Shown here: piece by piece, positions 3,788 through 55,093 of the stretch
How the letters are laid out: the number at the start of each line of letters is the position of its first letter
Numbering within the stretch: position 1 is the first letter of the stretch
Assembly: GCA_024397995.1 (NCBI GenBank)
Contig: CP073746.1
Coordinates: 558,001-622,000, forward strand
Source: a bacterium SCSIO 12827
GTDB taxonomy: Bacteria > Pseudomonadota > Alphaproteobacteria > Rhodospirillales > Casp-alpha2
DNA length: 64,000 nucleotides
Reading direction: 5' to 3'
The notes under the pieces: model-generated
Seen by the model: only the letters and a program-made list of their open reading frames with translations
What the model was told of the DNA's origin: nothing
Database searches by the model: none
Translations under genes and position numbers: made by a program

Positions 3788-5563
3788 ATGTGTGGACTTA
3801 GCGGCGAAATCAGATTCGACGACGGCAATGCGGACGCCCGCGCGGTGGCGCGGATGACGGACGCCATGGCGCCCCGGGGTCCTGATGCCTCGGGCCTGTT
3901 CCAGCAAAGCCGCTGCGCCTTCGGCCATCGCCGGCTCAAGATCATCGATTTGACGGAAAAGGCGCAGCAGCCCCTGATTGATGCCGAACTGGGCCTGACC
4001 ATCGCCTTCAACGGCTGTATTTATAATTACAAGGCCCTGCGCGAGGAGCTGATCGCCAAGGGCTACCGTTTCTTTTCCACGGGCGACACCGAAGTGGTGC
4101 TCAAGGCCTTTGCCGCCTGGGGCCCCGATTGCGTAAAACGTCTTAACGGGATGTTCGCGTTCGCCATCTATGAGCGCGACACGGGCCGCCTGACCCTGGC
4201 CCGCGACCGTCTGGGCATCAAGCCGCTGTACCTTGCGGAAAGCGGCAAGCGGTTGCGCTTCGCCTCGACTTTGCCTGCCCTGCTGGCCGGCGGCGATACG
4301 GACACGGACATCGATCCCGTGGGTCTGCACCATTACATGTCGTTTCACGCCGTGGTTCCGGCGCCCTATACGGTCCTGAAGGGCGTGCGCAAACTGCCGC
4401 CCGCGACCTATGCGGTGTTCGAGGCCGATGGCACCCGCCGCGACACGACTTACTGGTCCGTCGATTTCACACGCTCCGCCGACGATATGAAATTGTCCGC
4501 CGAGGATTGGTGCGATCTGGTTTATGACGCCCTGGCGTTGTCCATCGACCGGCGGCTCGAGGCCGATGTGGACGTCGGCGTGTTGCTGTCGGGCGGGGTC
4601 GATTCCTCACTGATCGTCGGCATGTTGGCACGCGCCGGCAAGACGCCGCTGCGTACCTTTTCCGTGGGCTTCGAGGATGCCGGCGGCGAAGCCGGCAACG
4701 AATTCAAGTATTCTGACCTGATCGCCAAGGAGTTCGGGACCGAGCATTACAAGATCCACATCGGCGCCAAGCGCCTGATGGATCTTTTGCCGGATACCAT
4801 CAAGGCGATGTCGGAGCCCATGGTCAGCCATGACAACGTGGGTTTCTTCGCGCTGTCCCAGGAAGTCTCCCAGCATGTGAAGGTGGTGCAGTCGGGCCAG
4901 GGTGCGGATGAAATCTTCGGCGGCTATTCCTGGTATCCGCCCTTGATGGATTCCAACGATCCCGTTGGCGATTATGCCCGTGTGTTCCGCGATCGTGATT
5001 TCGCGGATTACAAAAAGGCCGTGTCGCCGCAATACCACACGGACCGCGATGAAAGCCTGGCCTTCATCGAACGGAACTTCGCCCAGCCCGGCGCCGACCG
5101 TGCCGTGGACAAGGCGCTGCGCATCGATTCAACCATCATGCTGGTCGACGATCCGGTCAAGCGGGTCGATAACATGACCATGGCCTGGGGGCTTGAGGCC
5201 CGCGTGCCTTTCCTCGATCACGAACTGGTCGAACTGGCCGGCCGGGTGCCGCCCGAACATAAGGTGCGCGACGGCGGCAAAGGAGTGCTGAAGGACGTCG
5301 CCCGCAGGGTCGTCCCGGCCGAGGTGATCGACCGGCCCAAGGGATATTTCCCCGTGCCGGCATTGAAATACATCGAGGGTCCCTACTTGGAAATGGTGCG
5401 GGACACATTGGCGTCAAAGCCGGCGCGCGAAAGGTCGCTGTTCGACCGTGGCTATCTCGACATGCTGCTCGACGCGCCCGCCGATCACATCACGCCGCTC
5501 AAGGGCTCGAAGCTGTGGCAGGTGGCGCTCATGGAAACCTGGCTGCAGACCCACGGGGTGTGA
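3788..5563 (+). CDS. asnO: N-acetylglutaminylglutamine amidotransferase (asparagine synthase-like)
   Basis: The protein begins MCGLSGEI, so Cys2 is the N-terminal nucleophile of a class II glutaminase domain (about residues 2-190). It is followed by an asparagine-synthase ATP-pyrophosphatase domain with the P-loop-like LSGGVDSS near residue 270. Its 591 residues and the two genes downstream match the NAGGN pathway, in which this enzyme amidates the C-terminal carboxylate of N-acetylglutaminylglutamine using glutamine and ATP. The product, NAGGN, is a compatible solute made under salt stress in rhizobia and pseudomonads. The gene is the first of a three-gene operon; the next start is about 30 bases downstream. 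Confidence 0.9.
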   Translation: MCGLSGEIRFDDGNADARAVARMTDAMAPRGPDASGLFQQSRCAFGHRRLKIIDLTEKAQQPLIDAELGLTIAFNGCIYNYKALREELIAKGYRFFSTGDTEVVLKAFAAWGPDCVKRLNGMFAFAIYERDTGRLTLARDRLGIKPLYLAESGKRLRFASTLPALLAGGDTDTDIDPVGLHHYMSFHAVVPAPYTVLKGVRKLPPATYAVFEADGTRRDTTYWSVDFTRSADDMKLSAEDWCDLVYDALALSIDRRLEADVDVGVLLSGGVDSSLIVGMLARAGKTPLRTFSVGFEDAGGEAGNEFKYSDLIAKEFGTEHYKIHIGAKRLMDLLPDTIKAMSEPMVSHDNVGFFALSQEVSQHVKVVQSGQGADEIFGGYSWYPPLMDSNDPVGDYARVFRDRDFADYKKAVSPQYHTDRDESLAFIERNFAQPGADRAVDKALRIDSTIMLVDDPVKRVDNMTMAWGLEARVPFLDHELVELAGRVPPEHKVRDGGKGVLKDVARRVVPAEVIDRPKGYFPVPALKYIEGPYLEMVRDTLASKPARERSLFDRGYLDMLLDAPADHITPLKGSKLWQVALMETWLQTHGV

Positions 5564-5594
5564 CGGCGTGAACCGGCGAAAGGAAAACCCGGTC

Positions 5595-7325
5595 ATGGAA
5601 GATGCGCTTTCCCTGAAGCATTGGGGGACCCCGCCCAAGAACGGCATCGGCACGGTCGGCAAATGCGTCGCCGTGCATTGCGGCTGGGGCCGCGTGCTGT
5701 TCGGGCAGACCTTCGACAAGCCGGAATTATTGGCCGGCCGCCTGATGGAGGAAGAGACCGGCGAGCGCGACCTTGCCATCTACGTGCGCGACCCGCATGT
5801 CATCCTGTCCATGGCGCCACAGACCCTGTTTATGGACCCGTCGCACAGTTTTCGCCTGAACCTGCGGGAACTGCCGGCCACCGCCCGCGTCGCCGACAGC
5901 AACATGATCATCTTCCGGCCTGCCGTGGCCGACGACGAAGCGGCGGTTAACCGCATCTATACCTCACGCGGGATGGTGTCGTTGAAGCCCGGTTATCTGG
6001 GGGAACTCGACCACCGGCAATGCGTCACGGTGCTGGTCGCAGAATCGGTCCAGGACGGTGAAATTTTGGGCGTCGTCATGGGGATCGATCACACGATTGC
6101 CTTCGATGATCCCGAGGAAGGGTCAAGCCTGTGGGCCCTGGCCGTTGACGGTCAGGCGGCGGTGCCCGCCGTAGGCATTGGCTTGGTGACTGCGCTGGCG
6201 GATCATTTCCGCGTCGCCGGGCGCGCATTCATGGATCTGTCCGTGATGCATGACAATACCGAAGCCATCAAGCTTTACGAAAAGACGGGGTTCGAGAGGG
6301 TGCCCGTCTATACGGTGAAGAAGAAAAACCCGATCAACGAATCCTTGTTCATCGGCCCGCAGCGGGCTGAAAACCTGAACATCTACGCCAAGATCATCGT
6401 CGACGAGGCGCGTCGGCGCGGCATTCACGTGGATATCGAGGATGCGGCGGCGGGCCTGTTTACTCTGACGCTTGGCGGACGGTCCATCGCCTGCCGCGAA
6501 AGTCTGAGCGAACTGACTTCCGCCGTCGCCATGAGCCGTTGCGACGACAAGGCGTTGACCCACCGGCTTCTGGCCAAGGCCAATCTGAAAATGCCGGGGC
6601 AGGTCAGCCTGCGCAGCCGGGATGACGTGCGGGCGTTTTTGGAGAAGTACGGACGCATCGTCATCAAGCCCGCCCGGGGCGAACAGGGGCAGGGCGTGTT
6701 CGTTGATTTGTGTTCCGAGGACGAGGCGATCACGGCCTTCGACGAGGTCCGAGACCAGGTCGACCATGTGATCGGCGAGGAATTCGTCAACGGCCGCGAT
6801 CTTCGCATCATCGTTATCGGTGACGAGGTCGCCGCCGCCGCCGTGCGTCGGCCGCCACGTATCACCGGCGACGGACAGCACAGCATCCAGGAACTGATTC
6901 AGCGCCTGTCGCGCCGCCGGGCCGCCGCCACGGGGGGTGAAAGCCGCATTCCCATCGACGACGAAACCCGGCGTTGTCTGCAGGCTCAGGGCCACGGCAT
7001 GAATTCCATCCTGGGTGACGGCGTGGTGTTGGAGGTCCGCAAGACCGCCAACCTGCATTGCGGCGGCACCATCCACGATGTGACTGACGAACTGCATCCC
7101 GCGCTGCGCGATGCGGCCCTGACGGCGCGTCAGGTTCTGGGCATTCCCGTCGTCGGGTTCGATTTCATGGTTCCCCGCGTGGACGGACCCGACTACCGTA
7201 TCATCGAAGCCAATGAGCGTCCTGGCCTGGCCAATCACGAGCCGCAGCCGACGGCGCAGAAATTCGTCGATTTCCTGTTCCCCGAAACGCGCCAGGAATT
7301 GGTGAAAAATCCCGCAAGCGGGTAA
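5595..7325 (+). CDS. ngg: N-acetylglutaminylglutamine synthetase (GNAT plus ATP-grasp)
   Basis: This 576-residue fusion has an N-terminal GNAT acetyltransferase region (about residues 110-240, with LYEKTGFERVPVYTVK at its end). A C-terminal ATP-grasp ligase follows, with KPARGEQGQGVFVD as the glycine-rich ATP loop and FDFMVPRVDGPDYRIIEANERPG split over the metal-binding part. It would acetylate glutamine and ligate a second glutamine to give N-acetylglutaminylglutamine, the substrate of the preceding amidotransferase. The ATG at 5595 follows AAAGGAAA and was chosen over a GTG at 5568 that has no such site. The GNAT/ATP-grasp combination next to an asparagine-synthase homologue and an M42 peptidase is diagnostic of the NAGGN trio. 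Confidence 0.88.
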   Translation: MEDALSLKHWGTPPKNGIGTVGKCVAVHCGWGRVLFGQTFDKPELLAGRLMEEETGERDLAIYVRDPHVILSMAPQTLFMDPSHSFRLNLRELPATARVADSNMIIFRPAVADDEAAVNRIYTSRGMVSLKPGYLGELDHRQCVTVLVAESVQDGEILGVVMGIDHTIAFDDPEEGSSLWALAVDGQAAVPAVGIGLVTALADHFRVAGRAFMDLSVMHDNTEAIKLYEKTGFERVPVYTVKKKNPINESLFIGPQRAENLNIYAKIIVDEARRRGIHVDIEDAAAGLFTLTLGGRSIACRESLSELTSAVAMSRCDDKALTHRLLAKANLKMPGQVSLRSRDDVRAFLEKYGRIVIKPARGEQGQGVFVDLCSEDEAITAFDEVRDQVDHVIGEEFVNGRDLRIIVIGDEVAAAAVRRPPRITGDGQHSIQELIQRLSRRRAAATGGESRIPIDDETRRCLQAQGHGMNSILGDGVVLEVRKTANLHCGGTIHDVTDELHPALRDAALTARQVLGIPVVGFDFMVPRVDGPDYRIIEANERPGLANHEPQPTAQKFVDFLFPETRQELVKNPASG

Positions 7326-7336
7326 GGAGTAATTGC

Positions 7337-8476
7337 GTGAAGTACGACCTTTTCATAGACCGCGACTACATGGTCGAAATCCTGGCCAAGCTTTTGGCCA
7401 CGCCCAGCCCGACCGGCATGACGGACGAAGTCGTCGGCTTGGTCTGCGCGGAACTGAAAGAGCTCGACATTCCGTTCGAGCTGACGCGCCGGGGTGCGAT
7501 CCGCGCCGACCTGAAAGGCGAGGAAGCCTCGCCCGACCGTGCCATCGCGGCCCATCTCGATACCCTGGGTGCCATGGTCAAGGGATTCCGCCTGGGTGGG
7601 CGGTTGGAAGTCGTGCCGATCGGCCATTGGTCGTCCCGTTTTGCCGAGGGCGCGCGCTGCACCGTCCATTCCGACGGTGGGCGGACCTTCCGCGGCACCA
7701 TCCTGCCGGCCAAGGCATCGGGTCATACCTATAACGAAGCGATCGACACCCAGCCCACGGAATGGTCGGAGGTTGAATTGCGCCTGGATGAACGGGTTGG
7801 CTACGAACACGAGGTACGGGCTCTCGGCATCAACGTGGGCGACACGATTTCCATCGACCCGATGACCGAATTCATGCCCAACGGTTTCGTGTTTTCGCGC
7901 CATCTGGACGATAAGGCCGGGGTTGCGGCGCTGTTGGCGGCGGCGCGGGCAGTCAAGCGTGCGGGCACGGTCCTGCCCATTGATTGCCATCTGCTGTTCA
8001 CCATCACGGAAGAAGTCGGCGTCGGTGCCTCCGCCGTGCTGCACGGCGACGTGGCGGAGCTTGTGTCCATCGACAACGGCACCATCGCGCCGGGCCAGCA
8101 CACGTCCGAATACGGCGTGACCATCGCCATGCAGGATTCCTCGGGGCCTTTCGACTGGCACTTGTCGCGCTCCCTGATCGACATGTGCGTCGGCCACGGG
8201 ATCGAACATTCCCGCGATGTGTTCCGTTTCTACCGCTCCGACGCGGCGGCGGCGTTGGAAGCCGGAAATGACATCCGTACGGCGCTGCTGTGCTTCGCCC
8301 TGGACGCGTCGCACGGATATGAGCGCACGCACCTTGATTCGGTCATGGCGCTGACGCGTCTCCTGACCCTCTACATGCAGTCCAAGCCGATGTTCCTGCG
8401 TGACAAGGACGCGCTCGGGCCGCTCGGTGATCTGCCGGCGACGGAACGGGACAAGCCCGCGAAGGCGGCCGAGTAG
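7337..8476 (+). CDS. M42 family peptidase of the NAGGN osmoprotectant operon
   Basis: This 379-residue protein has the metal-site motifs of the M42 aminopeptidase family: AAHLDTLGAMV (His-Asp), HLDDKAGVAAL (bridging Asp), ITEEVGVGAS (catalytic and binding Glu pair) and VSIDNGTIA (Asp). The start is a GTG with TAAGGAG eight bases upstream, 11 bases after the synthetase. This peptidase is the regular third member of the NAGGN cluster in many proteobacteria. Its role is unproven; turnover of the dipeptide amide after osmotic downshift is the natural guess. It ends the operon. Confidence 0.85.
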   Translation: MKYDLFIDRDYMVEILAKLLATPSPTGMTDEVVGLVCAELKELDIPFELTRRGAIRADLKGEEASPDRAIAAHLDTLGAMVKGFRLGGRLEVVPIGHWSSRFAEGARCTVHSDGGRTFRGTILPAKASGHTYNEAIDTQPTEWSEVELRLDERVGYEHEVRALGINVGDTISIDPMTEFMPNGFVFSRHLDDKAGVAALLAAARAVKRAGTVLPIDCHLLFTITEEVGVGASAVLHGDVAELVSIDNGTIAPGQHTSEYGVTIAMQDSSGPFDWHLSRSLIDMCVGHGIEHSRDVFRFYRSDAAAALEAGNDIRTALLCFALDASHGYERTHLDSVMALTRLLTLYMQSKPMFLRDKDALGPLGDLPATERDKPAKAAE

Positions 8477-30888: not shown

Positions 30889-31962
30889 CTAACCCCGCGC
30901 CTTTATATCCGCCCGCGCCTTGGCGATCACGCCCGGATACTTCTTGCCCGGATAACGCGGCGCCTTGTCCAGATCGGCGAAGCCGGGGATGGTTTCCATA
31001 TGCTTGACCATGCGGTCGCGCATCTTCTGGTCGGGCAGGGGGCCTTTCAGCGCACCGATGTTTTCCGACGCATGGTCCGGATTGGCCGTGGCCGGAATGG
31101 CCGCCGTGATCGCCGGATGGGAGACGATCCATTTCAGGAAAAACTCGGCCCAGTTGGTGGCGAACTCCTTGGCGAAATCGGGCACCGAATGGCCCTCGAC
31201 CAGCTTGAACAGGCGGGCCTTTTCGAACGGCATGTTGACCAGCACGGCGGCGCCCACATCGGCGGCGGCGGGCAGGATCTTCTGTTCGGCCAGGCGGTTG
31301 AAGATGGAATAGTGGACCTGAACGAAGTCGGGCTTACCCTTGCGGATCCAGTCATGGAGAAGGTCGAAATAGGGCGGTTCGTGATGGGTGATGCCGACGT
31401 GCTTGATGTGGCCTTCCTTTTGCCAGACCTTGAGGATCGGCAGGATCACCGCGATGTTGGTCAGGCTGTGGACCTGCATCACGTCGAACTGCTTGCGCCA
31501 CAGGCGACGGCGGGATTCGTCCAGGCTGCGCTGGGCGTGGCTGTCGTCGAACAGGAACTCTCCGGTCGACCAGATTTTGTTGGCGATGAACAGCTTGTCG
31601 TTGATGTCGAGGGCCGAGGCGGAATCGCCAAGGGTCAGTTCGCCCGTGCCGTACAGCGGCGAGGTATCGACCACCCGTCCGCCGCCGTCGTAGAACCGTT
31701 TGAGAACCTCGCGCAGATGATTGCGCGGCTCACCCGGGATGGTGTCGTAGACAAGATAGGTACCCATGCCGATGGCAGGCACTTGCTGCCCGGTCTTGCC
31801 GATGGTCTTCATGATCGCGTCGGCGGGGACGGTGGCGCGTGCCGGGGTACCGCCGATCGCCAGGCCGGTAGGCAGGGCGGCCGCCGCCAGGCCCAGGCCC
31901 ACGGCTTTCATTACGTCGCGGCGCGAGGCCACGGGCTTCAGGGAAATGTCGGAATTGGTCAT
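30889..31962 (-). CDS. Tat-exported aldo/keto reductase
   Basis: This 357-residue protein carries a twin-arginine signal (ASRRDVMKAVGLGLAAAALP) followed by an aldo/keto reductase barrel. The tetrad is visible: Asp and Tyr in VVDTSPLYGTGE, Lys in LFIANKIW and His in DVMQVHSL. Periplasmic AKRs exist but are a minority, and folding with NADPH before Tat export would explain the signal. The substrate is unknown. The 172 bases upstream hold GC-rich inverted segments but no gene. Confidence 0.85.
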   Translation of the reverse strand: MTNSDISLKPVASRRDVMKAVGLGLAAAALPTGLAIGGTPARATVPADAIMKTIGKTGQQVPAIGMGTYLVYDTIPGEPRNHLREVLKRFYDGGGRVVDTSPLYGTGELTLGDSASALDINDKLFIANKIWSTGEFLFDDSHAQRSLDESRRRLWRKQFDVMQVHSLTNIAVILPILKVWQKEGHIKHVGITHHEPPYFDLLHDWIRKGKPDFVQVHYSIFNRLAEQKILPAAADVGAAVLVNMPFEKARLFKLVEGHSVPDFAKEFATNWAEFFLKWIVSHPAITAAIPATANPDHASENIGALKGPLPDQKMRDRMVKHMETIPGFADLDKAPRYPGKKYPGVIAKARADIKARG

Positions 31963-48810: not shown

Positions 48811-49686
48811 ATGAAACTCGATCTCGCCGCCGTCGAGGAAACGGCCAAACACCTCTATATCCAGGCGCTGAAGATTCTGCCGCCGGACATCAAGGACGGC
48901 TTCAAGCGCCTGGACGCGACGGAGACGGATCCGACGGCCAAGTCGATCCTGGCGACCATGATTAAGAACATCGACGTGGCCGAGGACACGACCAACCTTT
49001 TGTGTCAGGACACCGGCATCCCGATCTACAACATCCTGATCGGGCGCGGGGTCGAGGTCGACGGCCACGCCTTGAAGGAGGCGATCCGCAAAGGCTGTGA
49101 GCGGGCCACCACCGAACACCCGCTGCGCTCTTCCGTCGTCCATCCGATCACCCGGGTCAACGAACAGACCTCCTGCGGCATCAAGGTGCCGGTCATTACC
49201 ATCGACTTTTCCGACAAGGACGAGTTCTTCGAGATGGAAATGATCCCCAAGGGGTCCGGCTCGGAGAACGGCAGTTTCCTGAAGATGTGCATTCCGGCCG
49301 AGGGCGTGGCCGGCATCAAGACCTTCGTCGTCGACAAGGTGATGGAAGTGGGCGGGCGCGTCTGCCCACCGACCATCGTCGGCGTCGGCGTCGGCGGCAC
49401 GTCGGACCTCTGCACCAAGCTGGCCAAGAAAGCCGGGGCCCGGCCCTTGGGTTCCGTCTGCGAGGACCCGGAAGGGGCGAAGTTGGAAAAGGAACTGAGC
49501 GCCGCCGTCAACATGCTGGGCATCGGCCCGCAGGGCTTGGGCGGTGATTCCACTGCCTTCGCCGTGCATGTCGAAACCGCCGCCACCCACATCACCATGA
49601 ACCCGGTCGCCGTCAACATCATGTGCCATTCGGCGCGCCGCGCCCGGGCGACCTTTACGCCCAAGGGCGTCGAGATCGGCTTCTAG
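48811..49686 (+). CDS. Class I fumarase / L-tartrate dehydratase alpha-type subunit
   Basis: This 291-residue protein matches the N-terminal half of class I fumarases. LLCQDTGIPIYNI carries the first cluster Cys, TSCGIKVPVI is adjacent to the substrate site, and VGVGVGGTSDLCTKLAKKA and IGPQGLGGDSTAFAVHVE are family signatures with further Cys ligands. The oxygen-sensitive 4Fe-4S cluster hydrates fumarate to malate or dehydrates tartrate. The beta-type gene follows after 15 bases. Confidence 0.88.
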   Translation: MKLDLAAVEETAKHLYIQALKILPPDIKDGFKRLDATETDPTAKSILATMIKNIDVAEDTTNLLCQDTGIPIYNILIGRGVEVDGHALKEAIRKGCERATTEHPLRSSVVHPITRVNEQTSCGIKVPVITIDFSDKDEFFEMEMIPKGSGSENGSFLKMCIPAEGVAGIKTFVVDKVMEVGGRVCPPTIVGVGVGGTSDLCTKLAKKAGARPLGSVCEDPEGAKLEKELSAAVNMLGIGPQGLGGDSTAFAVHVETAATHITMNPVAVNIMCHSARRARATFTPKGVEIGF

Positions 49687-49701: not shown

Positions 49702-50313
49702 ATGACCGAACACACGATCCACATGCCCTGCACCGAGGAACAGATCGGCGAATTGAAAGCGGGTGATACGGTGATCCTGGAGGACTGGCTGTACGGCATC
49801 CGCGATGCGACGCAGATCCACATGTTCGATAAGGGCCGCAAGTCCCGGTTCGATCTGAACGGCCATGCGGTGATTCACACGGCCCCCAACGTGAAGAAGG
49901 TGCCGAAATCCAATTTCTGCCCGGCGGGTTATGAGAGTGTGTGCATCGGCACCACGACGTCGCAGCGCATGGAGCGGTTCACCCGGCCGCTGATGCAGGA
50001 ATACGGCGTGCGCATGGTGATCGGCAAGGGCGGTCTGGGTGAGGACAGCCGCGCCGCGTTCAAGGAATTCGGCGGCGTGTACCTGGCCATCATCGGCGGC
50101 ACGGCGGCGCTGGAGACCACCTGGATCGAGCAGATCACGGATGTGGACCTGGAAGACCTCAATCCCGAATGTCTGTGGGAATTCAAGATCAATCACTTCG
50201 GCCCGCTGCTGGTCGCCATGGATGCCCACGGCGGCTCGCTCTATGACGGGGTCAAGAAAACCGCCGAAGACCGCCGCGCCGAAGCGCTGGCCAGCATGGG
50301 AGTTTCCTCGTGA
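49702..50313 (+). CDS. Class I fumarase / L-tartrate dehydratase beta-type subunit
   Basis: This 203-residue protein matches the C-terminal half of class I fumarases, with LKAGDTVILEDWLYGIRDA at the start, PAGYESVCIGTTTSQRM and MVIGKGGLGEDSRAAFKE in the middle. With the alpha subunit it completes the active site. Its stop codon overlaps the start of the flavoprotein gene by four bases, coupling fumarase and flavoprotein production. Confidence 0.88.
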   Translation: MTEHTIHMPCTEEQIGELKAGDTVILEDWLYGIRDATQIHMFDKGRKSRFDLNGHAVIHTAPNVKKVPKSNFCPAGYESVCIGTTTSQRMERFTRPLMQEYGVRMVIGKGGLGEDSRAAFKEFGGVYLAIIGGTAALETTWIEQITDVDLEDLNPECLWEFKINHFGPLLVAMDAHGGSLYDGVKKTAEDRRAEALASMGVSS

Positions 50314-52061
50314 AGCCCGACATCGACACACAGCAGACCGACGTTCTGATTCTGGGCTCCGGCGGGGCCGGGCTGTTCGCGGCCCTGCACGCCAAGGACC
50401 TGGCGCCGCAGTTGAAGGTAACCGTGGCGGTCAAGGGCCTGCTCGGCAAGACCGGCTGCACCCGCATGGTTCAGGGCGGCTACAACGTGGCCCTGGCCCC
50501 CGGCGACAGCGCAGAACGCCATTTCATGGACACGGTCGAAGGCGGCAAATGGCTCAACAACCAGGAGCTTGCCTGGACCCTGGTGACCCAGGCCCAGGTC
50601 CGCATCCGCGAACTGGAAAACGAACTCGGCTGTTATTTCGACCGCAACCCGGACGGCAGCATCCACCAAAAAGCCTTCGCCGGGCAGACCTTCGACCGCA
50701 CGGTCCACAAGGGCGATCTGACCGGGATCGAGATCATCAACCGCCTGATGGAACAGACCTGGGCGCGCGATGTCGACAAGCTGGAAGACCACCGCGCCAT
50801 CGAGCTGATCAAGTCGGCGGACGGATCACGCATTTCCGGCGTGCTGTTCATCGACATGCGCACGGGCCAGTTCCGCTTCGTCCAGGCCAAGGCCGTGCTG
50901 CTGGCCACCGGCGGCGGGCCGACCATGTACAAGTACCACACGCCGTCGGGCGACAAATCCTGCGACGGCATGGCCATGGCCCTGCGCGCAGGCCTCGGCA
51001 TGCGCGACATGGAAATGGTGCAGTTCCACCCCACGGGCCTGATCGCCGGGTCGGACACGCGCATGACCGGCACGATCATCGAGGAAGGCCTGCGCGGTTT
51101 CGGCGGCTACCTTCTGGGCGGCGACGAACAGCGCTTCATGCACAAGTATGATGAGCGCAAGGAACGCGCGACCCGCGACATCGTGTCTCGCGCCATGTTC
51201 ACGGAAATGCGCGCGGGTAATGTGGCGGCCAACGGCGGGCTCTACATCACCATGAAGCATCTGGATACGGCCCAGGTGCGCAAGAACTTCAAGGGCATGG
51301 TGGAACGCTGCGCCGATTGCGGCTTCGATCTTGCCGCCGGGCTGGTCGAGGTCGTGCCGACGGCCCATTACATGATGGGCGGGGCCGAGTTCGAGGCCGA
51401 TTGCTCCACCGCCATCCCCGGTCTGTTCGCCGCCGGTGAGGATACGGGCGGCGTGCACGGCGCCAACCGCCTGGGCGGCAACGGGGTCGCCAATTCCACG
51501 GTGTTCGGCGGCATCGCCGGCGACACCATCGCCCAGTGGACGCCGGACCACGGCCGGCTTGCCGAACCGGATCCGGCTGCACTGGAAGACGCGGTGATGC
51601 GCGCCGGACGGCCGCTGACCCAGCCCGCCGACAATTCGGCCGGCGGCATCGACGGCATCCGCAAGCGGCTCTACGACCTGATGTGGGAAGACGCCGGCAT
51701 CATCCGTGATCTCGACTCATTGAAGCGGGCCGAATCCGGATTGGAAACCCTGGAGGCTGACCTGGACCGCACCGGCGTCACCGGCACGGACCTGGCCTAT
51801 AACCTGACCTGGCATGACTGGCTGAACCTGAAGAACCTGATCCTGGTGTCCAAGGCGATCACGGCGGCGGCCACGGCGCGCGACGACTCGCGCGGCGCAC
51901 ATTACCGTGCCGACTATCCGGACGTGCGTGATGTGGAAAATTCCCGCTTCACCCGCGTCACCCTGGACGGCCACGGCGAGATCAACATGACGACGGAGCC
52001 TGTGAAATTCACCCGCGTGAAACCGGGGGAGACGTTGTTGGACGAGACGGCGGCGGAGTAG
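50310..52061 (+). CDS. Fumarate reductase/succinate dehydrogenase-type flavoprotein without the FAD-linking His
   Basis: This 583-residue protein has the FAD-binding LILGSGGAGLFAALHAKDL and the dicarboxylate-site residues of the family: MVQFHPTGLI, EGLRGFGGYLLG, VVPTAHYMMGGAEF and GANRLGGNGVANSTVFGG. At the usual covalent-FAD site (SHTVxxQGG in SdhA/FrdA) it reads GCTRMVQGG, so the His is replaced by Cys and FAD is probably bound non-covalently. Work on E. coli FrdA variants at this His indicates that fumarate reduction can survive while succinate oxidation is lost. The enzyme may therefore run as a reductase or on another dicarboxylate. It is the last gene of the operon. Confidence 0.87.
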   Translation: MKPDIDTQQTDVLILGSGGAGLFAALHAKDLAPQLKVTVAVKGLLGKTGCTRMVQGGYNVALAPGDSAERHFMDTVEGGKWLNNQELAWTLVTQAQVRIRELENELGCYFDRNPDGSIHQKAFAGQTFDRTVHKGDLTGIEIINRLMEQTWARDVDKLEDHRAIELIKSADGSRISGVLFIDMRTGQFRFVQAKAVLLATGGGPTMYKYHTPSGDKSCDGMAMALRAGLGMRDMEMVQFHPTGLIAGSDTRMTGTIIEEGLRGFGGYLLGGDEQRFMHKYDERKERATRDIVSRAMFTEMRAGNVAANGGLYITMKHLDTAQVRKNFKGMVERCADCGFDLAAGLVEVVPTAHYMMGGAEFEADCSTAIPGLFAAGEDTGGVHGANRLGGNGVANSTVFGGIAGDTIAQWTPDHGRLAEPDPAALEDAVMRAGRPLTQPADNSAGGIDGIRKRLYDLMWEDAGIIRDLDSLKRAESGLETLEADLDRTGVTGTDLAYNLTWHDWLNLKNLILVSKAITAAATARDDSRGAHYRADYPDVRDVENSRFTRVTLDGHGEINMTTEPVKFTRVKPGETLLDETAAE

Positions 52062-52065
52062 GGGG

Positions 52066-53331
52066 CTAACGTTTCATAAAAGGAAACACGGTTTGGCGTT
52101 TGCGGCGGAGAATGTCACCATCAGATATACGGCCAGCAGCCTCCCTTTGATTTCCGTTCGGCGTGATGATTTCTAACTCGCCTTCGGATTGAAGAAATCC
52201 AAGTTGCTCCTTGATCAGGTCTTGCCATGCAACCGTATTGTTTGAGATCGAATTGGCTAAATTTTTAAAAGTGGTGCCTTCTTCTTGACTATATATTAGA
52301 TCGGGCAATTCGGCCTGTAAGGCCTTAATGCATTCATTTTTGTCTATGTCGTCAAACCCAAAGTCCAATATTCCTGAAAGACCGGGATCGTTTCTCGCGT
52401 TGTAGCCCCACATATGCATTTTAGTGCCGGGTCCACCGTAGTGTCTGAACAGATTTCCAACATCCCAGTGCGTCTTAATCATTTCGTCGTGTGCCTTTGG
52501 ATGCATGCAAAGGTGCACTAACCAATAGGCTCGGTGGCTTTCTTCAGAGACAATATAAAAAGGTGTGTAGAATTTAGAGCCGGTGGCGTGTTTGATCGCG
52601 GCTGACAGTTCTCGTTCAGCGAGGAAGCGCCACCCCTTTTGCTTCCCCACGATTTGATCGTCTTCAAGGATAGATTCTGAAATTCCCGCTTTGTGAAGTG
52701 CCTGTCTGAACTCTGTGGAGTCATTCAAGTATGCCAAAAGTGAGTCTGTGGCGAAGTTCAGAATTATCTCTGACCGAGGTAGCTTCCGAAGAATGTTCGC
52801 AATCGAATCTAATGGAACATCCGAGTATCCAAATTGATCGAGAAGGAAAATGGCTTTCGCACGGCCGCTTCGAGCAGAAATTTGACCGACGATCTTTTCG
52901 TAAACCGATGAAAATTCCGCGTTGATCAAATAAATCGATACCCCGATCGCGTCTTTAAATCCTTGATCGATCAAGGTTTGTCTTAGGTATTCGATGGCGT
53001 GTTTGTCGGAGTCTACAAAGAAATAACGAGCTTCAATATCTAGGGGCCTGCCGCGCTTTTCCCCGACCGCAATCCGTGCAGCTTCAATCGAACGTAGAAA
53101 CGTAAGAGGGGATCCAAAGCGGACATTTCCTTGTTTGTCCGTGAATTGTCCGCCTCCAGCAAAACCGTCGACAACATCGAGCCGCAATACTGGCATCTTC
53201 ACCAAGATGCCAAGAGTTTCGATGTATCGAGAGAGGTACCCGTGAAGAACGTCGAGTTTAGCAAGACTGTGAGGCTCGATGAGAGGTGGTGGATCACCAG
53301 GCGTCCAGAGAAAATTCTTCGGCTTTGCCAT
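52066..53331 (-). CDS. tcmP: Three-Cys-motif partner protein TcmP
   Basis: This 421-residue protein matches my memory of the TcmP family: SLAKLDVLHGYLSRYIETLG near the start, VVDGFAGGGQFTDKQGN as a methyltransferase-like nucleotide loop, RYFFVDSDKHAIEYL as the following acidic strand, and KAIFLLDQFGYSDVPL in place of a catalytic motif. TcmP genes occur next to genes for proteins with a CxxxxxxCxxC motif, as here. The gene is visibly AT-rich, with many AT-ending codons, against its GC-rich neighbours, which indicates acquisition by transfer. Its biochemical role is unknown; a nucleic-acid-modifying or defence function is a guess. Confidence 0.8.
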   Translation of the reverse strand: MAKPKNFLWTPGDPPPLIEPHSLAKLDVLHGYLSRYIETLGILVKMPVLRLDVVDGFAGGGQFTDKQGNVRFGSPLTFLRSIEAARIAVGEKRGRPLDIEARYFFVDSDKHAIEYLRQTLIDQGFKDAIGVSIYLINAEFSSVYEKIVGQISARSGRAKAIFLLDQFGYSDVPLDSIANILRKLPRSEIILNFATDSLLAYLNDSTEFRQALHKAGISESILEDDQIVGKQKGWRFLAERELSAAIKHATGSKFYTPFYIVSEESHRAYWLVHLCMHPKAHDEMIKTHWDVGNLFRHYGGPGTKMHMWGYNARNDPGLSGILDFGFDDIDKNECIKALQAELPDLIYSQEEGTTFKNLANSISNNTVAWQDLIKEQLGFLQSEGELEIITPNGNQREAAGRISDGDILRRKRQTVFPFMKR

Positions 53332-53351
53332 TCGATCGATCGCTCTCTATC

Positions 53352-53370
53352 AGTTCTAAATTAGTTCTAA
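53352..53370 (-). repeat. Period-11 direct repeat upstream of tcmP
   Basis: AGTTCTAA occurs at 53352-53359 and 53363-53370, an exact 8-base repeat with an 11-base period, about 20 bases upstream of the tcmP start. Repeats in phase with one helical turn suit tandem binding of a regulator. The 83-base gap is otherwise AT-rich and without a gene. Confidence 0.4.
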
Positions 53371-53414
53371 TTAAATCCTATAGTAGTTTTTGGGGGCAAA
53401 ATTTTTTAGTGAAA

Positions 53415-54170
53415 TTATTCTGCGGCGACACCTGCCGTTTGTGCCGCTCTACTAGCAGGAAACCCGTCCCACAACTGTCCTTCTAATTCGCGCCCGCCAG
53501 TCTTGGGCCGGAAGCCGCCCCATTGTTTGAAGAAGAACGGAATTTTCTGGGCGATGCATTGGTCGCGGACTTCGGTCGCCCATTCTTCCTTCATCTCGCG
53601 GAAACCGGGGCCGCTTTCGCCGCCGACGATCACCCAATGGATGCCGGTAAGGTCGACCTTGCCGATGGGGCCGATCAAGGGTTCGACGGAAAGGAAACGC
53701 GTGCCGGCCTGCATGTCACGGATATGCTTGATGCGGGATTTCTTGGACCCGTCCTCGACCGAGGTGCCGAGCCAAATGTGCAAGGGAGCCGCGCCGTCGC
53801 CGTAGCGCCGATTCACGTAATCGCGCATGCGCGACGACCGTTTGGTCAGCACCTGGAAGGTGTGCCAGCGGGCCTGCTCCATGGTGTCGAAGACCTTGTC
53901 CACATAGGCGAACGGCACGTTCTTGTGGAACAGGTCGCTCATGGAGTTCACGAAGATCATCTTCGGGGTGCGGATGGTGAGGGGTTGGTTCAGGCGATGC
54001 GGGCGCAGGGTCAGGTCGAAGCCTTCCTCATACGGATGGCCCGGCACGCCCCGGAACCGCTCCGCGAAACGCTCTGCATAGCAGTTGTCGCAGCCCGCAC
54101 TGATCTTCGTGCAGCCCGTCACCGGGTTCCACGTCAGGTTGGTCCATTCGATCTGCGATTCCTGAGTCAT
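53415..54170 (-). CDS. Three-Cys-motif protein, DUF5131 / phage Gp37-Gp68 family
   Basis: The 251-residue protein begins with SQIEWTNLTWNPVTGCTKIS and the Cys motif GCTKISAGCDNCYAE (CxxxxxxCxxC), which suggests a 4Fe-4S cluster as in radical SAM-like proteins. The conserved MIFVNSMSDLFH, FQVLTKRSSRM and HWVIVGGESGPGFR segments match the phage Gp37/Gp68 family. It precedes tcmP on the same strand, the usual pairing. Base composition is closer to the host than that of tcmP. A TTGAAA-N17-TATCTT promoter places the transcript start almost at the ATG at 54170. The function is unknown. Confidence 0.83.
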   Translation of the reverse strand: MTQESQIEWTNLTWNPVTGCTKISAGCDNCYAERFAERFRGVPGHPYEEGFDLTLRPHRLNQPLTIRTPKMIFVNSMSDLFHKNVPFAYVDKVFDTMEQARWHTFQVLTKRSSRMRDYVNRRYGDGAAPLHIWLGTSVEDGSKKSRIKHIRDMQAGTRFLSVEPLIGPIGKVDLTGIHWVIVGGESGPGFREMKEEWATEVRDQCIAQKIPFFFKQWGGFRPKTGGRELEGQLWDGFPASRAAQTAGVAAE

Positions 54171-54179
54171 GATGCATCC

Positions 54180-54208
54180 AAGATAGAACAAAATAGGAAC
54201 AATTTCAA
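54180..54208 (-). promoter_or_regulatory. Putative promoter of the three-Cys/tcmP cassette
   Basis: On the minus strand TTGAAA (plus 54203-54208) and TATCTT (plus 54180-54185) are separated by exactly 17 bases. The expected transcript start is two to four bases before the start codon at 54170, so the mRNA would be nearly leaderless. The surrounding 130 bases are AT-rich and hold no gene. Confidence 0.5.
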
Positions 54209-54304
54209 GATTACTCTCTATCGTAGAAATTAATCCCCAAGACCTAAGAGTTAGTTACTCACGAAAGCCTTTCCGAGGTTCTTTTAACCCCCTAGGATTC
54301 CGTC

Positions 54305-55093
54305 ATGATTCGAACCCGCACCATCTTGGCGCTCGCCGCCGTGGTCTTGCTCGCCGGCTGTCTGCAGCTGACGGAAGCGCGGCGCGTGACCGATCCGTTC
54401 GTCAAGGCGGCGGCCGATCCGCTCGACGTCTATACCTTCCAGATCGACAAGGCGCGGGAAACGGGTCAGTGGTCCGAAGGCGAACGCTGGATAGCCCAGG
54501 TTCCGCCCAAGCTGATCGACGATTACCGCCGCTGGTTCGAGCCGCAGGCCCATTATTTCCCGCCGCTGTGGATTTACGCCTCGGCGCGCAAGCTGGAGCA
54601 GGGCGGAAACGAGCTGAAGGCCGCCTATTGGTACATCGCCGCCCGTGAACGCCAGATCCGCCAACTGCGCCGCTGCCGCGACGACAGCGCCAAGGAACAG
54701 CTGATCTGGGCCGATGGCGCCTTCGCCGACCTGCGCCGGGAAATGGGCCGGCACGAGGAACTGACCCGCTATGCCGCCAAGCATGCCTTCACCTGGCTTG
54801 ATCGGCACGAGGACACGGACGATGGCCTGCTTGCTGCCTGCCTGCGCGGCAAGGCGGGGGCGGAACGGGCCCGGGATGGAAAGCTGATCCCCGTCGAGGG
54901 CACGGGCGGCCCCGGCAAGACCTTTCGTTTGCTCCCGCCGCCGGTGGAAAACCCCGCCGACTGGATCATCCCGGCGGCCGAAATTCACGACATCCGCACC
55001 TGGTCGCGCATCCTGATGAAGCAAGACGTTGCGAAGATACTGGGCGAGCCCGAGACCGAGCCGCCGACGCCGACGATCACGCCCCTGCGCTAG
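54305..55093 (+). CDS. Putative lipoprotein of unknown function
   Basis: This 262-residue protein has a signal sequence ending in the lipobox LLAGC (residues 15-19), so Cys19 should be lipidated. The mature part is largely helical with basic stretches (YWYIAARERQIRQLRRCRDD) and a Pro-rich C-terminus. It does not resemble a family I can name. It lies between the AT-rich TcmP cassette and a membrane protein gene on the same strand. Confidence 0.72.
   Translation: MIRTRTILALAAVVLLAGCLQLTEARRVTDPFVKAAADPLDVYTFQIDKARETGQWSEGERWIAQVPPKLIDDYRRWFEPQAHYFPPLWIYASARKLEQGGNELKAAYWYIAARERQIRQLRRCRDDSAKEQLIWADGAFADLRREMGRHEELTRYAAKHAFTWLDRHEDTDDGLLAACLRGKAGAERARDGKLIPVEGTGGPGKTFRLLPPPVENPADWIIPAAEIHDIRTWSRILMKQDVAKILGEPETEPPTPTITPLR

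What the first reader, a model, noticed from the sequence alone, without database searches (positions are those of the whole stretch)
52066..54208. AT-rich TcmP/three-Cys cassette of unknown function
Seen: tcmP is clearly poorer in GC than its surroundings, with AT-rich gaps on both sides, next to a DUF5131/Gp37-type gene with a CxxxxxxCxxC motif. Known: the two families occur together with patchy distribution. Inference: a recently gained two-gene system, possibly defence or nucleic-acid modification, inserted between the dicarboxylate operon and a lipoprotein gene. The base composition differs between the two partners, so they may have been joined rather than moved as one piece.
Basis: partly seen in the sequence, partly recalled or inferred. 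Interest (0 to 1): 0.62.

Follow-up and report, generated by a model that had tools for sequence, protein, structure and literature searches.

The report
DNA-damage-controlled two-enzyme gene cassette
A recently gained two-gene bacterial cassette pairs a conserved radical enzyme with an exchangeable methyltransferase, and its promoter carries what looks like the cell's own DNA-damage (SOS) switch, a testable clue to a widespread gene pair of unknown function.

Summary
tcmP (52066-53331, -) and a DUF5131 gene (53415-54170, -) form an operon-like cassette between a fumarase/flavoprotein operon and a lipoprotein gene. Two of seven genus-mates have only 52 bp there. tcmP is AT-rich, but this is a family trait: TcmP is poorer in GC than its DUF5131 partner in 81 of 88 pairs.

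New evidence: (1) DUF5131 models as a radical-SAM enzyme nearest spore photoproduct lyase; TcmP as a methyltransferase nearest RlmJ, plus a winged helix. (2) Promoter plus DUF5131 is conserved and TcmP is swapped: the window and genus-mate G003 share DUF5131 (about 80%) beside the same gene, but their TcmPs are 17% identical. (3) The DUF5131 promoter holds GTTC-N7-GTTC, the alphaproteobacterial LexA box, as near this genome's recA and lexA. It is in 31 of 39 alphaproteobacterial loci with DUF5131 at least 60% identical, 0 of 30 with less, and 3 of 967 other ORFs.

Best reading: a mobile, SOS-induced, nucleic-acid-acting two-enzyme module. Defence is possible but unproven; known defence genes were not enriched around 19 pairs. 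The pair is a known kind (NCBIfam, PADLOC candidate); SOS control and partner exchange were not found in the papers searched.

The parts
52066..53331 (-). tcmP: RlmJ-like SAM-dependent methyltransferase domain (residues 20-291) plus C-terminal GMT-like winged helix (residues 309-393)
   Evidence: TIGR04474 173.2 bits vs cut-off 53; PF22560 47 bits vs 27; model pLDDT 83.6; nearest fold RlmJ Z 16.2, 209 residues, 3.0 A
53415..54170 (-). DUF5131 gene (ATG start; a TTG at 54191 is an alternative that would overlap the operator); radical-SAM-like, C20-x6-C27-x2-C30
   Evidence: PF07505 322.5 bits vs 28.9; model pLDDT 92.5; nearest fold spore photoproduct lyase Z 13.6, 196 residues, 3.0 A
54186..54200 (-). 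GTTCCTATTTTGTTC: LexA-type operator (GTTC-N7-GTTC)
   Evidence: motif for alphaproteobacteria in PMC3323433 (passage)
54180..54208 (-). sigma-70-like promoter TTGAAA-17-TATCTT whose spacer holds the operator
   Evidence: 2 promoter-like sites found against 1.8 expected, so the scan alone is not significant
53353..53367 (+). second GTTC-N7-GTTC in the DUF5131/tcmP gap; the window holds three in all (31693, 53353, 54186)
   Evidence: not a general feature: 1 of 19 such gaps of 15 bp or more has one
53456..54208 (-). block of DNA similarity shared with G003, G440, G010 and L082: promoter plus most of DUF5131; none in tcmP against G003 and G440
   Evidence: 72-77% identity; G010 is cut at a contig end and L082 has no tcmP, so tcmP cannot be compared there
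52062..54287 (.). inserted segment relative to the empty site (right edge uncertain by about 20 bp)
   Evidence: 52 bp between the flanking genes in G004 and G001
50310..52061 (+). left flank: FAD flavoprotein (FAD_binding_2 / Succ_DH_flav_C), after two fumarase genes
54305..55093 (+). right flank: lipoprotein-like gene, present in 8 of 8 genus genomes
   Evidence: no Pfam match

Best explanation
A small horizontally acquired conflict or repair module. SHOWN by sequence: two genes inserted together; DUF5131 first, tcmP second; a GTTC-N7-GTTC operator inside the DUF5131 promoter, of the same form as sites upstream of this genome's recA and lexA; DUF5131 conserved and TcmP exchanged between loci. 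INFERRED: LexA represses the operon and DNA damage (which infecting phages and incoming plasmids can also cause) switches it on. DUF5131 is a radical-SAM enzyme of fixed chemistry acting on a nucleic acid or nucleotide. TcmP is a methyltransferase for an exocyclic amine of a purine in RNA or DNA, whose fast-changing, exchangeable sequence sets the target. The two act on the same pathway (one natural fusion). Net role: a damage-induced nucleic-acid-modifying system, more likely directed against mobile elements than housekeeping.
For: Operator upstream of DUF5131: 31 of 39 alphaproteobacterial loci whose DUF5131 is at least 60% identical, against 0 of 30 with under 60%, 3 of 967 other mechanical ORFs of 150 aa or more in the same loci, and 0.2% of shuffles (recounted with a second anchor, same numbers). 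The same motif stands upstream of recA in 8 of 8 and of lexA in 7 of 7 loci of the genus, in either orientation. TGTTCN6TGTTC occurs 18 times in the whole genome against 5 for the reversed control; one site is at a UmuD/UmuC-like pair. It is in 0 of 7 non-alphaproteobacterial loci with DUF5131 at 60% or more. Folds. Partner exchange: 15 changes of TcmP clade on the DUF5131 tree against 3 on its own tree; AU p 5e-86 against one clade for the TcmPs of window, G003 and G440. Fusion L107. 30 of 31 TcmPs over cut-off have DUF5131 within 1 kb. Prophage-type context: Gordonia phage Easley carries the pair between integrase and repressor genes.
Against: Known defence genes are not enriched beside 19 pairs: 8 PADLOC models matched by one protein each among 149 neighbours, against 12 models (14 matches) among 148 control proteins. 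The operator is absent in DUF5131 under 60% identity (0 of 30), in all non-alphaproteobacterial loci tested, in 77 of 80 viral contigs and in 8 of 8 annotated plasmid/phage loci checked, so SOS control cannot be the core of the family's function. In 3 alphaproteobacterial loci (L043, L058, L068) a match lies 158-200 bp from the anchor and was counted as absent. About half of DUF5131 genes have no TcmP beside them (30 of 59 over cut-off, some of them contig-edge fragments). The motif IV of TcmP is mostly D-[PQ]-x-G and never DPPY (0 of 88), so adenine-N6 chemistry is not assured. No expression, binding or activity data.
Confidence: 0.45

Rival explanations
1. Toxin and antidote: TcmP is a growth-inhibiting nucleic-acid methyltransferase and DUF5131, with its repair-enzyme fold, prevents or reverses the damage. 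Stand-alone DUF5131 in phages would then be a counter-defence.
For: TcmP is found beside DUF5131 in 30 of 31 places (the exception lies at a contig end), while 30 of 59 DUF5131 places have no TcmP beside them, and 70 of 80 viral contigs with DUF5131 have no detected TcmP in the stretch held. DUF5131 comes first in 63 of 88 pairs. Nearest fold is a DNA-lesion-reversing enzyme. In viral contigs L172/L173 tcmP is broken by a transposase gene while DUF5131 is open.
Against: One DUF5131 would have to neutralise TcmPs only about 15-20% identical. No demethylating radical-SAM enzyme of this type is known to me (recalled). Loci were mostly gathered by DUF5131 similarity, which biases towards intact DUF5131.
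Confidence: 0.2
2. DNA repair: an SOS-induced lesion-repair enzyme (a spore-photoproduct-lyase cousin) with an accessory methyltransferase, with no role in conflict.
For: SPL is the best PDB fold, ahead of other radical-SAM enzymes (Z 13.6 vs 11.1). LexA-type operator. SplB-like radical-SAM photolyases are tied to SOS repair operons in PMC3765255 (passages, abstract included).
Against: Patchy distribution. An exchangeable hypervariable partner is unlike a repair gene. It occurs beside prophage repressors and integrases.
Confidence: 0.2
3. The GTTC-N7-GTTC is the cassette's own operator, bound by the TcmP winged helix rather than by LexA.
For: It sits at a nearly fixed place next to the DUF5131 start and travels with one DUF5131 subfamily.
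Against: Same motif at recA, lexA and a umuDC-like locus of the host. Present at L082, which has DUF5131 but no TcmP detected. Present with TcmPs of unrelated clades. Absent in 7 of 7 non-alphaproteobacterial hosts with DUF5131 of at least 60% identity.
Confidence: 0.08

Closest known systems
PADLOC candidate systems PDC-M30 and PDC-M41 (DUF5131 + TcmP)
   Same: Both window proteins match their models: DUF5131 at 2e-101 (M30B) and 5e-102 (M41B); TcmP at 3e-29 (M30A) and 2e-8 (M41A).
   Different: Those are predictions by 'guilt by embedding', not validated (PMC10855318, passages). This cassette sits alone among housekeeping genes.
Radical SAM mobile pair A/B (NCBIfam TIGR04471 and its partner)
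   Same: DUF5131 is homologous over profile positions 11-196 of 220 (79.6 bits); also a two-gene unit on a plasmid.
   Different: Far below the cut-off (355); the partner in that pair is annotated 'pair protein B', not TcmP.
RlmJ, 23S rRNA A2030-N6 methyltransferase
   Same: Best structural neighbour of TcmP (Z 16.2; Foldseek 6e-7) and best profile match in the PDB (E 0.005).
   Different: About 10-12% identity; motif IV mostly D-[PQ]-x-G instead of DPPY (recalled for RlmJ); extra helical part and winged helix; hypervariable and patchy.
Spore photoproduct lyase
   Same: Best structural neighbour of DUF5131 (Z 13.6, 196 residues).
   Different: About 11% identity; cluster motif C-x6-C-x2-C instead of the C-x3-C-x2-C of SPL (recalled).
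LexA (SOS) regulons of Alphaproteobacteria
   Same: Operator GTTC-N7-GTTC within the promoter spacer; same motif upstream of recA/lexA of the genus; motif in print (PMC3323433, PMC12907096; passages).
   Different: A DUF5131/TcmP member was not found in the papers searched.

Membership tests
TcmP (TIGR04474) | score over the curated cut-off | tested here: met
   173.2 vs 53 bits
DUF5131 (PF07505) | score over the gathering cut-off, whole domain | tested here: met
   322.5 vs 28.9 bits, positions 1-243 of 243
Radical SAM mobile pair A (TIGR04471) | score over the curated cut-off | tested here: not met
   79.6 vs 355 bits
Radical SAM superfamily | radical-SAM-type fold | tested here: met
   Nearly all of the top 34 VIA rows are radical-SAM enzymes by title or to my knowledge, Z 8.0-13.6; Foldseek E 6.9e-4
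Radical SAM superfamily | three cluster cysteines | tested here: met
   C-x6-C-x2-C in 199 of 206 DUF5131 ORFs of 220 aa or more; C20, C27, C30 invariant in 57
Radical SAM superfamily | [4Fe-4S] cluster and SAM cleavage | not testable with these tools
   needs protein chemistry
Spore photoproduct lyase | C-x3-C-x2-C motif (recalled) | tested here: not met
   C-x6-C-x2-C in the window protein
RlmJ | DPPY-type motif IV (recalled) | tested here: not met
   0 of 88; DPFG 23, DPTG 19, DPYG 7 and others; DQFG in the window
Class I SAM-dependent methyltransferase | fold plus motif I and motif IV Asp | tested here: met
   D55 88/88, G59 87/88, D165 88/88
LexA regulon | host-type LexA box in the promoter | tested here: met
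LexA regulon | LexA binding and damage induction | not testable with these tools
   needs EMSA and RT-qPCR
PADLOC PDC-M30/M41 | both proteins match the models | tested here: met
Anti-phage defence system | sits among defence genes | tested here: not met
   no enrichment near 19 pairs against 19 control regions of the same genomes; small sample
Anti-phage defence system | reduces phage plating | not testable with these tools
   needs phage challenge
Toxin-antitoxin system | one gene toxic without the other | not testable with these tools
   only the pairing pattern was seen

The most novel reading that the evidence does not exclude
A new regulatory and evolutionary type of conflict system: a conserved platform made of an SOS-controlled promoter and a radical-SAM enzyme, onto which unrelated RlmJ-like methyltransferases are plugged and swapped at the same chromosomal site. 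DNA damage by an invader would trigger a two-step nucleic-acid modification whose target is set by the swapped partner, through chemistry not described, as far as I know, for any defence system.
Probability: 0.3. Interest if true: 0.82.

Novelty: new member of a known kind. Interest (0 to 1): 0.6.

Why it matters
The DUF5131/TcmP pair is widespread: DUF5131 is over cut-off in 55 and TcmP in 30 of 387 genomes sampled in one class, and both occur on plasmids and phages. Its function is unknown. A host-type SOS operator at a nearly fixed place, a conserved platform with exchanged partners, two specific fold assignments and a natural fusion turn 'function unknown' into a handful of cheap tests. 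If SOS control is real, it links DNA-damage signalling to a mobile radical-SAM/methyltransferase module.

Tried and rejected
Base composition as proof of separate origin: rejected as sufficient, because the TcmP/DUF5131 GC offset is family-wide (81 of 88). Defence-island embedding: tested against matched control regions, not seen. I scanned 149 of 170 neighbour ORFs and 148 of 169 control ORFs; 4 control ORFs over 900 aa were dropped, one more to fit the residue limit, the rest left out at random. Pfam on the same sets gave no recurrent family beyond 3 members among the 25 listed for each set.

Vertical inheritance of DUF5131 at one ancestral site: considered because DUF5131 identity tracks that of the flanking flavoprotein (both about 80% for G003). 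Weakened by G440, whose pair lies about 1 kb away between a DUF6279 gene and a dehydrogenase, with an empty site in its sister G439. Repeats marking the insertion ends: no direct repeat at both ends, and no integrase or transposase recognised beside the cassette. A second LexA-type site in the DUF5131/tcmP gap as a general feature: rejected, 1 of 19. LexA boxes of other phyla upstream of DUF5131: only scattered hits. Exact RlmJ or SPL membership: rejected on motifs. Trm1 came next after RlmJ in the fold list (Z 14.6); its DPFG-like motif is recalled and was not tested. The name 'GMT' of PF22560 was not explained by any search.

Selection notes: L080-L159 and L160-L239 are the best 80 of 392 and of 112 relatives by DUF5131 similarity, so counts on them are not random samples; the 387-genome class survey is drawn evenly. 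In tree and operator counts four duplicate loci (L081, L088, L098, L104) were dropped. The trees hold 37 and 35 chosen rows, and the TcmP tree carries a long-branch warning. The AU-test groups were named after the trees were seen, and the clade-change count was not compared with shuffled labels.

Papers: PMC12445080, PMC12429752, PMC10855318, PMC10853773, PMC3765255, PMC3323433 and PMC12907096 were seen as passages only; all others as search listings.
Full report
WHAT IS THERE. The window is G000:C1:558001-622000 of a 3.93-Mb single-contig genome. Between a fumarase/flavoprotein operon (fumarase genes 48811-49686 and 49702-50313, flavoprotein 50310-52061) and a lipoprotein-like gene (54305-55093) lie two genes on the minus strand. 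DUF5131 (53415-54170) is read first and tcmP (52066-53331) second, with 83 bp between them. DUF5131 matches PF07505 over its full length; TcmP matches TIGR04474 and ends in a GMT-like winged helix, PF22560. PADLOC knows both only as candidate-system proteins PDC-M30 and PDC-M41. In print I found PDC-M30 as an unvalidated prediction in 32 P. aeruginosa strains of a panel of 100, 68.8% of the 32 being phage-resistant (PMC10855318, passages). 'DUF5131' occurs in no paper of the library, and 'three-Cys-motif partner protein' in three, of which the two I looked into name it in passing in tables.

COMPOSITION. tcmP has GC 0.469 in a window of 0.634. This is a habit of the family: in 88 adjacent pairs TcmP is poorer in GC than DUF5131 in 81, TcmP is below its flanks in 81 of 86 and DUF5131 in 79 of 86. 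Both genes therefore look foreign in most loci, TcmP more so. The window's GC3 contrast (0.48 against 0.79, with four host genes at 0.83-0.89) is at the strong end.

INSERTION. All 8 genus genomes keep the flavoprotein/lipoprotein neighbourhood. In G004 and G001 the two genes are 52 bp apart. In G006, G005, G002 and G007 the gap holds a DUF1847 gene. G003, the most distant, has flavoprotein - TcmP - DUF5131 - DUF1847 - lipoprotein. DUF1847 is in 5 of 8 genus genomes and was not found in G000, G004 or G001. Of 48 family genomes searched, 39 have the flavoprotein. I looked at the stretch after it in these 39; in 9 of the 31 outside the genus the contig ended within 0.7-4.6 kb. Besides G000 and G003 only G440 showed the pair, about 1 kb off, between a DUF6279 gene and a dehydrogenase that are about 0.14 kb apart in its sister G439. 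So the pair arrives as a two-gene insert with no integrase or transposase recognised beside it, twice with a demonstrable empty site.

PARTNER EXCHANGE. G000 and G003 have DUF5131 79-82% identical in the same place, but their TcmPs share 17% of residues, about the level of unrelated family members. DNA similarity between G000 and G003, G440, G010 or L082 starts at or near the -35 of the DUF5131 promoter (window 54201-54211) and ends about 40 bp before the end of DUF5131 (53456-53462). Against G003 and G440 there is none in tcmP; G010 is cut by a contig end and L082 has no TcmP. On trees, DUF5131 of G000, G003, G440, G010 and L082 form a clade (support 100/97), while the TcmPs of G000, G003 and G440 fall in three supported clades; forcing them into one is rejected. 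TcmP clade changes at least 15 times on the DUF5131 tree of the same rows against 3 on its own tree. DUF5131 pairs at 70-80% identity (168 pairs of loci) have TcmPs at a median of 23%. The conserved unit is promoter plus DUF5131; TcmP is the exchanged part. G003 also carries a second copy of a 23-bp flavoprotein 3' end (2 mismatches to the window's) directly beside its tcmP stop, 57 bp past its own flavoprotein stop, which looks like a scar of transfer between equivalent sites.

OPERATOR. Upstream of DUF5131 lies GTTCCTATTTTGTTC (54186-54200, minus strand), inside the 17-bp spacer of TTGAAA/TATCTT. GTTC-N7-GTTC is the LexA motif of Alphaproteobacteria (PMC3323433, passage; for Caulobacter PMC12907096, passage). 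In this genus it stands upstream of recA in 8 of 8 and of lexA in 7 of 7 loci (the lexA of G007 was not found over cut-off), and one genomic site is at a UmuD/UmuC-like pair. The stricter TGTTCN6TGTTC occurs 18 times in the genome against 5 for the pattern read backwards. Across alphaproteobacterial loci whose DUF5131 is at least 60% identical, 31 of 39 have the motif close upstream; with under 60% identity 0 of 30; three further matches lie 158-200 bp away and were not counted. Other mechanical ORFs in the same loci: 3 of 967; TcmP genes 2 of 57; shuffled sequence 0.2%. Fisher p is 2e-12 and 4e-48, treating loci as independent, which related loci are not. Outside the motif and its immediate T flanks the upstream DNA has little conservation (34 rows; the eight core positions are fixed by how the rows were chosen). 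Seven non-alphaproteobacterial loci with DUF5131 of at least 60% lack it. Against a general rule: 8 of 8 annotated plasmid and phage loci lack it, as do 77 of 80 viral contigs.

FOLDS AND MOTIFS. DUF5131 (pLDDT 92.5): best PDB fold spore photoproduct lyase (Foldseek 6.9e-4; Z 13.6 over 196 residues, 3.0 A), then SuiB, viperin and RlmN near Z 11. C-x6-C-x2-C is present in 199 of 206 ORFs. TcmP (pLDDT 83.6): RlmJ (Foldseek 5.8e-7; Z 16.2 over 209 residues), then Trm1 at 14.6; RlmJ is also the best sequence-profile match in the PDB (E 0.005). K25, D55 and D165 are invariant in 88 of 88; motif IV is mostly D-[PQ]-x-G and never DPPY. The folds point to nucleic acids as substrate but do not show it.

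PAIRING. In 387 class genomes 31 TcmP places are over cut-off; 30 have DUF5131 within 1 kb (one of them a contig-edge fragment under the cut-off) and the other lies at a contig end. Of 59 DUF5131 places over cut-off, 29 have TcmP beside them. Among 80 viral contigs with DUF5131, 10 hold a TcmP in the stretch fetched. L107 (a Binatota MAG) is one 662-aa ORF with both parts. Gordonia phage Easley carries the pair between integrase and immunity-repressor genes; an Acidovorax plasmid has DUF5131 with two TcmPs beside a helicase, a GIY-YIG nuclease and a DNA methyltransferase; a P. aeruginosa plasmid has the pair after a site-specific integrase.

READING. The best-supported description is a mobile two-enzyme module with a host-type SOS switch, a conserved radical-SAM component and an exchangeable methyltransferase that is seldom or never found without it. 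What it does to which nucleic acid is open. Defence is attractive because of mobility, rapid partner turnover and prophage contexts, but the direct neighbourhood test did not support it. Toxin/antidote and plain repair remain as rivals, and the same experiments separate all three.

Noticed in passing
L107:5001-6986: Natural fusion of DUF5131 and TcmP in one 662-aa ORF of a Candidatus Binatota MAG; its TcmP half resembles the window's subtype.
   Followed up: yes
L027:6699-6721 (G003): A second copy of a flavoprotein 3' end (23 bp, 2 mismatches to the window's) beside the tcmP stop, after the native flavoprotein stop at 6641: a possible transfer scar.
   Followed up: partly
L172:3394-5992 and L173: tcmP in viral contigs interrupted by a Mutator-family transposase gene (PF00872, scanned in L172), DUF5131 open; L174 has an uninterrupted tcmP.
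   Followed up: partly
L082:5001-8333: DUF5131 of the window's clade with the operator but no TcmP; it faces a D12-class DNA adenine methyltransferase gene and a 489-aa protein without Pfam match.
   Followed up: partly
L243 (Acidovorax plasmid) 5083-8102: One DUF5131 followed by two TcmP genes, next to helicase, GIY-YIG nuclease and DNA methyltransferase genes.
   Followed up: no
L112:4902-9148: Stand-alone DUF5131 in a planctomycete facing a large ORF that reads like an error-prone DNA polymerase (DnaE2 type, recalled, not scanned).
   Followed up: no
window 52062-54304 and genus loci L027-L033: The flavoprotein/lipoprotein gap is variable in the genus: a DUF1847 gene in five of eight genomes (with the pair in G003), empty in two, DUF5131/TcmP without DUF1847 in the window's genome.
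   Followed up: yes
window 31693-31707: A third GTTC-N7-GTTC (read as GAAC-N7-GAAC on +), inside an ORF whose start reads like an aldo/keto reductase with a Tat-type leader (recalled); significance unknown.
   Followed up: no
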